Shown here piece by piece: positions 57,536-58,395 of a stretch of DNA of 64,000 nucleotides. A program made the position numbers and the translations under genes. Positions within the stretch are counted from its first letter, which is position 1. Every line of letters starts with the position of its first letter. This DNA comes from Euzebyales bacterium (GTDB lineage: Bacteria; Actinomycetota; Nitriliruptoria; Euzebyales; JAHELV01), in assembly GCA_036374135.1 (NCBI GenBank), contig DASUUK010000035.1:1-64000 (forward strand), read 5' to 3'. The notes beneath the pieces are model-generated. The model searched no databases, was not told the origin of the DNA, and saw nothing but the letters and a program-made list of their open reading frames with translations.

Positions 57536-57571
57536 GAGCGTCGGAGCGTCCCACACGCACGGAGTTGTACC

Positions 57572-57799
57572 TTGCCGAAATCCCGATCCAAGCGCTCGAC
57601 CTACATCCCGCCGAAGCCGCCGAGGCCGAAACCGAGCCCGAGGTGGGTGCCCGCGCTCGGCCTTGGCCTCATCGGCGTGGGCACCCTGATCCTGATCCTG
57701 ATCTACCTCATCCCGGGGATACCCGGCGGCAACATCAACCTCATCATCGGGTTCGTGATGATGGCGGCGGGGCTGGTGACGTTGAGCCGCTGGCGGTGA
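57572..57799 (+). CDS. crgA: Cell division protein CrgA
   Basis: A 75-residue CrgA. It begins PKSRSKRSTYIPPKPPRPKP after a TTG start, followed by two membrane helices (WVPALGLGLIGVGTLILILI and NLIIGFVMMAAGLVTLS) separated by a short IPGGNIN turn. CrgA recruits or stabilises FtsZ-ring and septal peptidoglycan proteins. GGAG at 57561-57564 fits the TTG start. It is too short for a default length cut-off and has a rare start, so it could be missed by automatic gene finding. Confidence 0.92.
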   Translation: MPKSRSKRSTYIPPKPPRPKPSPRWVPALGLGLIGVGTLILILIYLIPGIPGGNINLIIGFVMMAAGLVTLSRWR

Positions 57800-57858
57800 C
57801 TCCAACGGCTGACGATCCCATGGATTCGTCTACTCCCACCGATGAGATTTCCCCAATG

Positions 57859-57985
57859 TTGTCCACACCTGGGGATAACCTGCGTGTGCGTGTGGTGGCC
57901 GATCACGCTCCGCACGGCGGCGACCGGCCCGTGCGGACCACCTCTCGCCCGCACTATCCACATGGTTATCCACAGGTGTGGACCA
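57859..57985. promoter_or_regulatory. Cluster of DnaA-box-like 9-mers
   Basis: The gap between crgA and the zinc-ribbon gene contains TTGTCCACA (57859-57867, plus), TTATCCCCA (57870-57878, minus), CTATCCACA (57954-57962, plus), TTATCCACA (57966-57974, plus) and TGGTCCACA (57977-57985, minus). Two match the consensus exactly (TTATCCACA and the actinobacterial TTGTCCACA), three differ at one base. A further TTCTCCACA lies at 58099-58107. The rest of 57800-58044 holds no gene. It may be a DnaA-titration or replication-control site, or an origin. Confidence 0.62.
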
Positions 57986-58044
57986 CGGCTCCGGACATGC
58001 GCCCATGCCCGGTCGGCCCGGATCGGCGGCGCCTCTGCCGCCGT

Positions 58045-58395
58045 TCACAGTCTCCGATCCGGGCGTTCGCGGGCGATCTCCACACGCTCGCGCATCCGTT
58101 CTCCACAGTGGCGCGGCGCGCTGTCGGTGCCGCGCATCAGCAACAGCACCTCGGCGCCGCAGCCGGCACACCAGTAGGTGATGCGTTCGTTCGCCACGTC
58201 CACCGGGACCGGGTCACCGTCTGGGATGTGCGCCGCACCCGCCTGCAGGGAGCGCAACGAACCAAGGCCGAACCACAGGATCACGACGCCGAGCAGCGGA
58301 GCGAACGCGTAGGACGACGGCACATCGGTGGCGAGCACCACCACCACGGCCACGACGACCGCGATGACCGCCAGGACGACGATCCAGCGACGCAT
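58045..58395 (-). CDS. Membrane protein with C-terminal zinc-ribbon-like motif
   Basis: A 116-residue protein with two membrane helices (WIVVLAVIAVVVAVVVVLAT and APLLGVVILWFGLGSL) and a soluble end with ITYWCAGCGAEVLLL and SAPRHCGERM, where CxxC and a later HC could hold zinc. The start at 58395 follows GGAAGG. The 3' end contains one extra DnaA-box-like 9-mer. No family function is known; it faces the DnaA-box cluster and is divergent from the DedA gene. Confidence 0.75.
   Translation of the reverse strand: MRRWIVVLAVIAVVVAVVVVLATDVPSSYAFAPLLGVVILWFGLGSLRSLQAGAAHIPDGDPVPVDVANERITYWCAGCGAEVLLLMRGTDSAPRHCGERMRERVEIARERPDRRL

What the first reader, a model, noticed from the sequence alone, without database searches (positions are those of the whole stretch)
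57859..58107. DnaA-box cluster far from the expected origin
Five DnaA-box-like 9-mers within 127 bp, including exact TTATCCACA and TTGTCCACA, plus a sixth at 58099, lie between crgA and a zinc-ribbon gene. In actinobacteria with this gene order oriC is between dnaA and dnaN, which here should be to the right of gyrA, about 10 kb away. The cluster could be a titration/regulation locus (analogous to datA or DARS) or the true origin after rearrangement.
Basis: partly seen in the sequence, partly recalled or inferred. Interest (0 to 1): 0.7.

Follow-up and report, generated by a model that had tools for sequence, protein, structure and literature searches.

The report
Conserved DnaA-binding site beside crgA
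Next to the cell-division gene crgA, about 12 kb from the replication origin, this actinobacterium carries a tight cluster of binding sites for the replication starter protein DnaA; the same cluster sits in the same place in most actinobacterial genera sampled, so it is probably an old control site for replication rather than an origin or an accident.

Summary
The boxes are real and far beyond chance, but there are six in two copies of one 32-bp module, not five plus one. Each module is box, 3 bp, box, 2 bp, facing box (57847-57878 and 57954-57985). It is not the origin: dnaA-dnaN lies at 69.7-70.1 kb with six boxes and the GC-skew turn. In the whole 3.98-Mb genome, allowing 3 mismatches, the module occurs three times: two here, one upstream of dnaA. 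Across 69 actinobacterial genera (22 families), DnaA boxes pile up directly 3' of crgA: 47 have two or more within 300 bp, against 0.3 expected. Spacings 12 (tandem) and 11 (facing) are shared. In M. tuberculosis and M. smegmatis this locus (Rv0010c-Rv0011c; Rv0011c = crgA) is one of five DnaA-bound sites (PMC7738170), so DnaA binding there is known; I found no report of the phylum-wide conservation or the module. Best reading: a non-origin DnaA control site working through an ordered DnaA assembly. Whether it acts as a sink (datA-like) or a reactivator (DARS-like) is not settled.

The parts
57571..57800 (+). crgA (septation protein, 76 aa)
   Evidence: PF06781 match over the curated cut-off in the whole-genome search; a plain hmmscan of the 76-aa ORF at E 0.001 listed no family
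57847..57878 (+). DnaA module A: ATTTCCCCA (57847+), TTGTCCACA (57859+), facing TTATCCCCA (57870-); spacings 12 and 11
   Evidence: Sequence; genome-wide module search; conserved block in 4 congeners
57954..57985 (+). DnaA module B: CTATCCACA (57954+), TTATCCACA (57966+), facing TGGTCCACA (57977-); spacings 12 and 11
   Evidence: Sequence; genome-wide module search; conserved block in 4 congeners
57801..58044 (.). Intergenic region between the 3' ends of crgA and the zinc-ribbon gene, which converge
   Evidence: ORFs; 66% GC against 70.5% for the contig
58045..58395 (-). Zinc-ribbon membrane protein gene; contains the spurious 'sixth box' 58099-58107
   Evidence: Translation and codon check

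Best explanation
This is a conserved, non-origin DnaA control site. SHOWN: two copies of a three-box module (tandem pair with 3-bp gap, then a facing box with 2-bp gap) lie 3' of crgA, between convergent genes and 12.5 kb from dnaA; boxes at this place and these spacings recur across Actinomycetota. SHOWN BY OTHERS in mycobacteria: DnaA binds the orthologous site in vitro and in cells. INFERRED: DnaA binds each module cooperatively as an ordered complex, the tandem pair plus a facing molecule. Because the site is copied soon after oriC fires, it changes the amount or the nucleotide state of free DnaA and so helps set initiation timing and its coordination with division. I favour control of DnaA activity by the assembled complex, as at E. 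coli DARS/datA, over a plain stoichiometric sink: the geometry is strict and the number of boxes is small.
For: Box density is 1.39 per 100 bp in the first 100 bp 3' of crgA and 0.74 in the next, against about 0.02 elsewhere within 1.5 kb, in 69 genera. 47/69 have at least 2 boxes within 300 bp, shuffles 0.3 (max 2); tandem-12 in 36 genera, facing-11 in 28, facing-23 in 30, full module in 28 genera of 10 families; shuffles about 0. The module occurs in the own genome only at crgA (2) and 5' of dnaA (1), with 0 for the reversed control pattern. A pattern scan of 84,980 genomes: of 80 loci held, 21 have crgA, 41 lie at dnaA/rpmH-rnpA and 6 at dnaB. Congeners keep the two modules while the spacer diverges. 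Mycobacterial DnaA binds the orthologous site; site variants give longer cells, as dnaA variants do; neither flanking gene changes in dnaA mutants (PMC7738170). The E. coli DARS core also has box I facing tandem boxes II-III.
Against: No binding or phenotype data exist for this organism. 14/69 genera have no box within 300 bp of crgA. The module is also at dnaA and dnaB upstream regions, so it may be a general DnaA operator rather than a dedicated activity switch. The facing gap differs from DARS (2 bp against 5 bp). In mycobacteria the site lies 65 bp upstream of Rv0010c, so a promoter role is not excluded there.
Confidence: 0.55

Rival explanations
1. A simple DnaA sink (initiator titration): the boxes only hold DnaA, and doubling them just after initiation lowers free DnaA and blocks early re-initiation.
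For: crgA lies within 60 kb of dnaA in 34 of 36 genomes measured, median 24 kb, so the site is copied early. [quoted passage not shown] coelicolor and B. subtilis (cited in PMC5742627). E. coli boxes are denser near oriC (PMC12371093).
Against: Few boxes (often 2-4) with conserved geometry. In two genomes the boxes stay with crgA at 143 and 338 kb from dnaA. Mycobacterial site variants resemble hypomorphic dnaA (long cells), not over-initiation.
Confidence: 0.25
2. A transcription-control site: DnaA bound here regulates crgA or the downstream gene, tying replication to septation.
For: Boxes follow crgA, a division gene, even when crgA lies far from dnaA. The same module lies upstream of dnaA and dnaB.
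Against: Here the site is between two 3' ends. The next gene and its orientation vary between lineages while the boxes stay (heuristic gene calls). Rv0010c and Rv0011c expression is unchanged in dnaA mutants.
Confidence: 0.15
3. An active or relocated replication origin.
For: Cluster of boxes near dnaA.
Against: dnaA-dnaN gap with six boxes at 69687-70053 and the cumulative GC-skew minimum near 69 kb. The crgA gap is no richer in AT than the dnaA-dnaN gap. The module is absent from 21 dnaA-dnaN regions examined.
Confidence: 0.01
4. Chance, or another regulator's operator that resembles DnaA boxes.
For: Single-mismatch boxes occur elsewhere in the window.
Against: Simulations, phylum-wide conservation, co-occurrence of the module at dnaA and dnaB, and DnaA binding at the orthologous site.
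Confidence: 0.02

Closest known systems
Rv0010c-Rv0011c DnaA site of Mycobacterium (Hicks et al. 2020, PMC7738170)
   Same: Same place (3' of crgA = Rv0011c); palindrome of two DnaA boxes; in sampled genomes that look mycobacterial by CrgA and gene order (genus g67) crgA is 13-35 kb from dnaA and boxes are present
   Different: In those genomes the downstream gene is co-directional and the facing gap reads as 1 bp; here the genes converge, the gap is 2 bp and the module is doubled. No binding data here
DARS1/DARS2 core of E. coli
   Same: Three boxes: one facing two tandem boxes with 12-bp period
   Different: Facing period 14 instead of 11; IHF/Fis regulatory parts not looked for here; ADP release untested
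datA of E. coli and DnaA-box clusters of Streptomyces (Smulczyk-Krawczyszyn 2006) and B. subtilis
   Same: Intergenic non-origin DnaA-box cluster
   Different: Box arrangement not compared in detail. From memory only: one Streptomyces cluster (H69) may be this locus; the paper was not held

Membership tests
Non-origin DnaA-box cluster (general kind) | Several DnaA boxes clustered beyond chance outside oriC | tested here: met
Non-origin DnaA-box cluster (general kind) | Bound by DnaA in cells | not testable with these tools
   Shown only for the mycobacterial orthologue (PMC7738170)
Mycobacterial Rv0010c-Rv0011c site | Position directly 3' of crgA with facing DnaA boxes | tested here: met
DARS (DnaA-reactivating sequence) | Box I facing tandem boxes II-III | tested here: met
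DARS (DnaA-reactivating sequence) | Fixed DARS spacing, 14 then 12 bp | tested here: not met
   11 then 12 bp here
DARS (DnaA-reactivating sequence) | Promotes ADP release from DnaA | not testable with these tools
   needs purified DnaA
datA | IHF-dependent stimulation of DnaA-ATP hydrolysis | not testable with these tools
   biochemical
oriC | Between dnaA and dnaN / at GC-skew turn | tested here: not met

The most novel reading that the evidence does not exclude
The crgA-3' element is an ancestral actinobacterial counterpart of DARS/datA: a three-box DnaA assembly platform, older than the split of the sampled families, which switches DnaA's activity and links initiation to septation.
Probability: 0.3. 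Interest if true: 0.8.

Novelty: new member of a known kind. Interest (0 to 1): 0.58.

Why it matters
How actinobacteria limit DnaA is poorly understood. A DnaA site kept beside the same division gene in most of the genera sampled, and already linked to cell length in mycobacteria, gives a single small target for testing that control in harmless laboratory species.

Tried and rejected
Origin relocation (rejected). The sixth box at 58099 (rejected as coding). A 2-bp-gap inverted pair as the general signature: it held in the own order but mostly failed in other families of the class, and was replaced by the tandem-12 plus facing-11 module. The module as specific to crgA: rejected, since the genome-wide scan also finds it at dnaA and dnaB. 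A dnaB-upstream site in this genome: no boxes found within 1.5 kb. The Streptomyces 2006 paper is not held. The organism's class was not identified: DnaA identity to the named loci at hand was no guide.

Full report
OBSERVATION. Counting up to one mismatch to TTDTCCACA, the window has 18 sites, five of them in 127 bp; 300 first-order Markov simulations never gave more than 3 in 127 bp. The real unit is a 32-bp module of three boxes: box, 3-bp gap, box, 2-bp gap, facing box. Module A is 57847-57878 and module B 57954-57985. In three congeners both modules survive as conserved blocks, with a few changes, while the spacer between them diverges and is much shorter than here. The box at 58099 is in the zinc-ribbon gene and encodes part of its HCGER motif.

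NOT THE ORIGIN. dnaA and dnaN lie on the same contig; the gap between them (69687-70053) has six boxes. The cumulative GC skew of the 126-kb contig turns near 69 kb, although the skew is weak.

SPECIFICITY IN THIS GENOME. Exact TTDTCCACA occurs 20 times in 3.98 Mb, five of them between 57.9 and 71.5 kb of this contig. The full module with up to three mismatches occurs three times, two here and one at 71500-71530 upstream of dnaA; the reversed control pattern gave none.

CONSERVATION. CrgA (PF06781) was located in relatives, class and phylum. In one genome per genus (69 genera, 22 families) the density of boxes jumps from about 0.02 to 1.39 per 100 bp at the crgA stop codon and falls back within 500 bp. 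55 of 69 have at least one box within 300 bp, 47 at least two, 34 at least three; dinucleotide shuffles give 5.4, 0.3 and 0.02. Spacings are shared: tandem 12 bp in 36 genera, facing 11 bp in 28, facing 23 bp in 30, each about 0 in shuffles; the full module is in 28 genera of 10 families. The spacings were chosen after looking at some of these sequences, but the shuffle comparison covers all spacings from 9 to 40. The module was not found in 21 dnaA-dnaN regions. Fourteen genera show no box within 300 bp, so the site is common, not universal. crgA is within 60 kb of dnaA in 34 of 36 genomes; in two it is 143 and 338 kb away and still has boxes.

UNBIASED SCAN. This ties the module to DnaA, and shows it is not confined to crgA.

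LITERATURE. Hicks et al. 2020 (PMC7738170) found five DnaA-bound regions in M. tuberculosis DNA in vitro and their homologues in M. [quoted passage not shown] Rv0011c is crgA (PMC3989709). Natural variants there fall mostly in a palindrome of two DnaA boxes; reconstructed variants had longer cells, like dnaA variants; expression of the two flanking genes was unchanged in dnaA mutants. So DnaA binding 3' of crgA is known in mycobacteria. In E. coli, DnaA prefers boxes 2-3 bp apart (PMC11317965). The DARS core has one box facing two tandem boxes (PMC5742627); I measured 14 and 12 bp there against 11 and 12 bp here.

MECHANISM. Location between convergent genes here, changing neighbours elsewhere (heuristic gene calls), early replication and fixed geometry point to control of DnaA rather than of a promoter. 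Which way it acts is inferred only. The mycobacterial phenotype and the DARS-like order of boxes lean towards a positive or activity-switching role; proximity to oriC and the Streptomyces and Bacillus precedents lean towards a negative one.

LIMITS. Gene' of crgA are heuristic (the automatic call is wrong for this genome itself, where the ORF list shows a convergent neighbour); genomes are one per genus from a sample; genomes held are unnamed, so 'mycobacterial' and 'Streptomyces-like' among them are inferences. The paper library holds only open-licence papers; the statement that the conservation is unreported rests on that library.

Noticed in passing
G000 contig C74:98862-99132 (locus L094): A further non-origin DnaA-box cluster (TTGTCCACA, TTGTCCCCA, TTATCCACA and two one-mismatch boxes) just 3' of a protein-coding frame (96300-98576); conservation not tested.
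   Followed up: partly
L002:15501-15531 (contig C35:71500-71530): The same three-box module lies just upstream of dnaA, a likely autoregulatory site.
   Followed up: partly
L141, L148, L149, L164, L181: The same three-box module sits next to dnaA in Selenomonas-type Firmicutes and Methylomirabilota, outside the actinobacteria.
   Followed up: no
L140, L154, L161, L180, L188, L204: Module beside dnaB in Jiangellaceae-type genomes and an Actinomycetaceae MAG, matching the dnaB-upstream DnaA site known in mycobacteria; no boxes at dnaB in the window's genome.
   Followed up: partly
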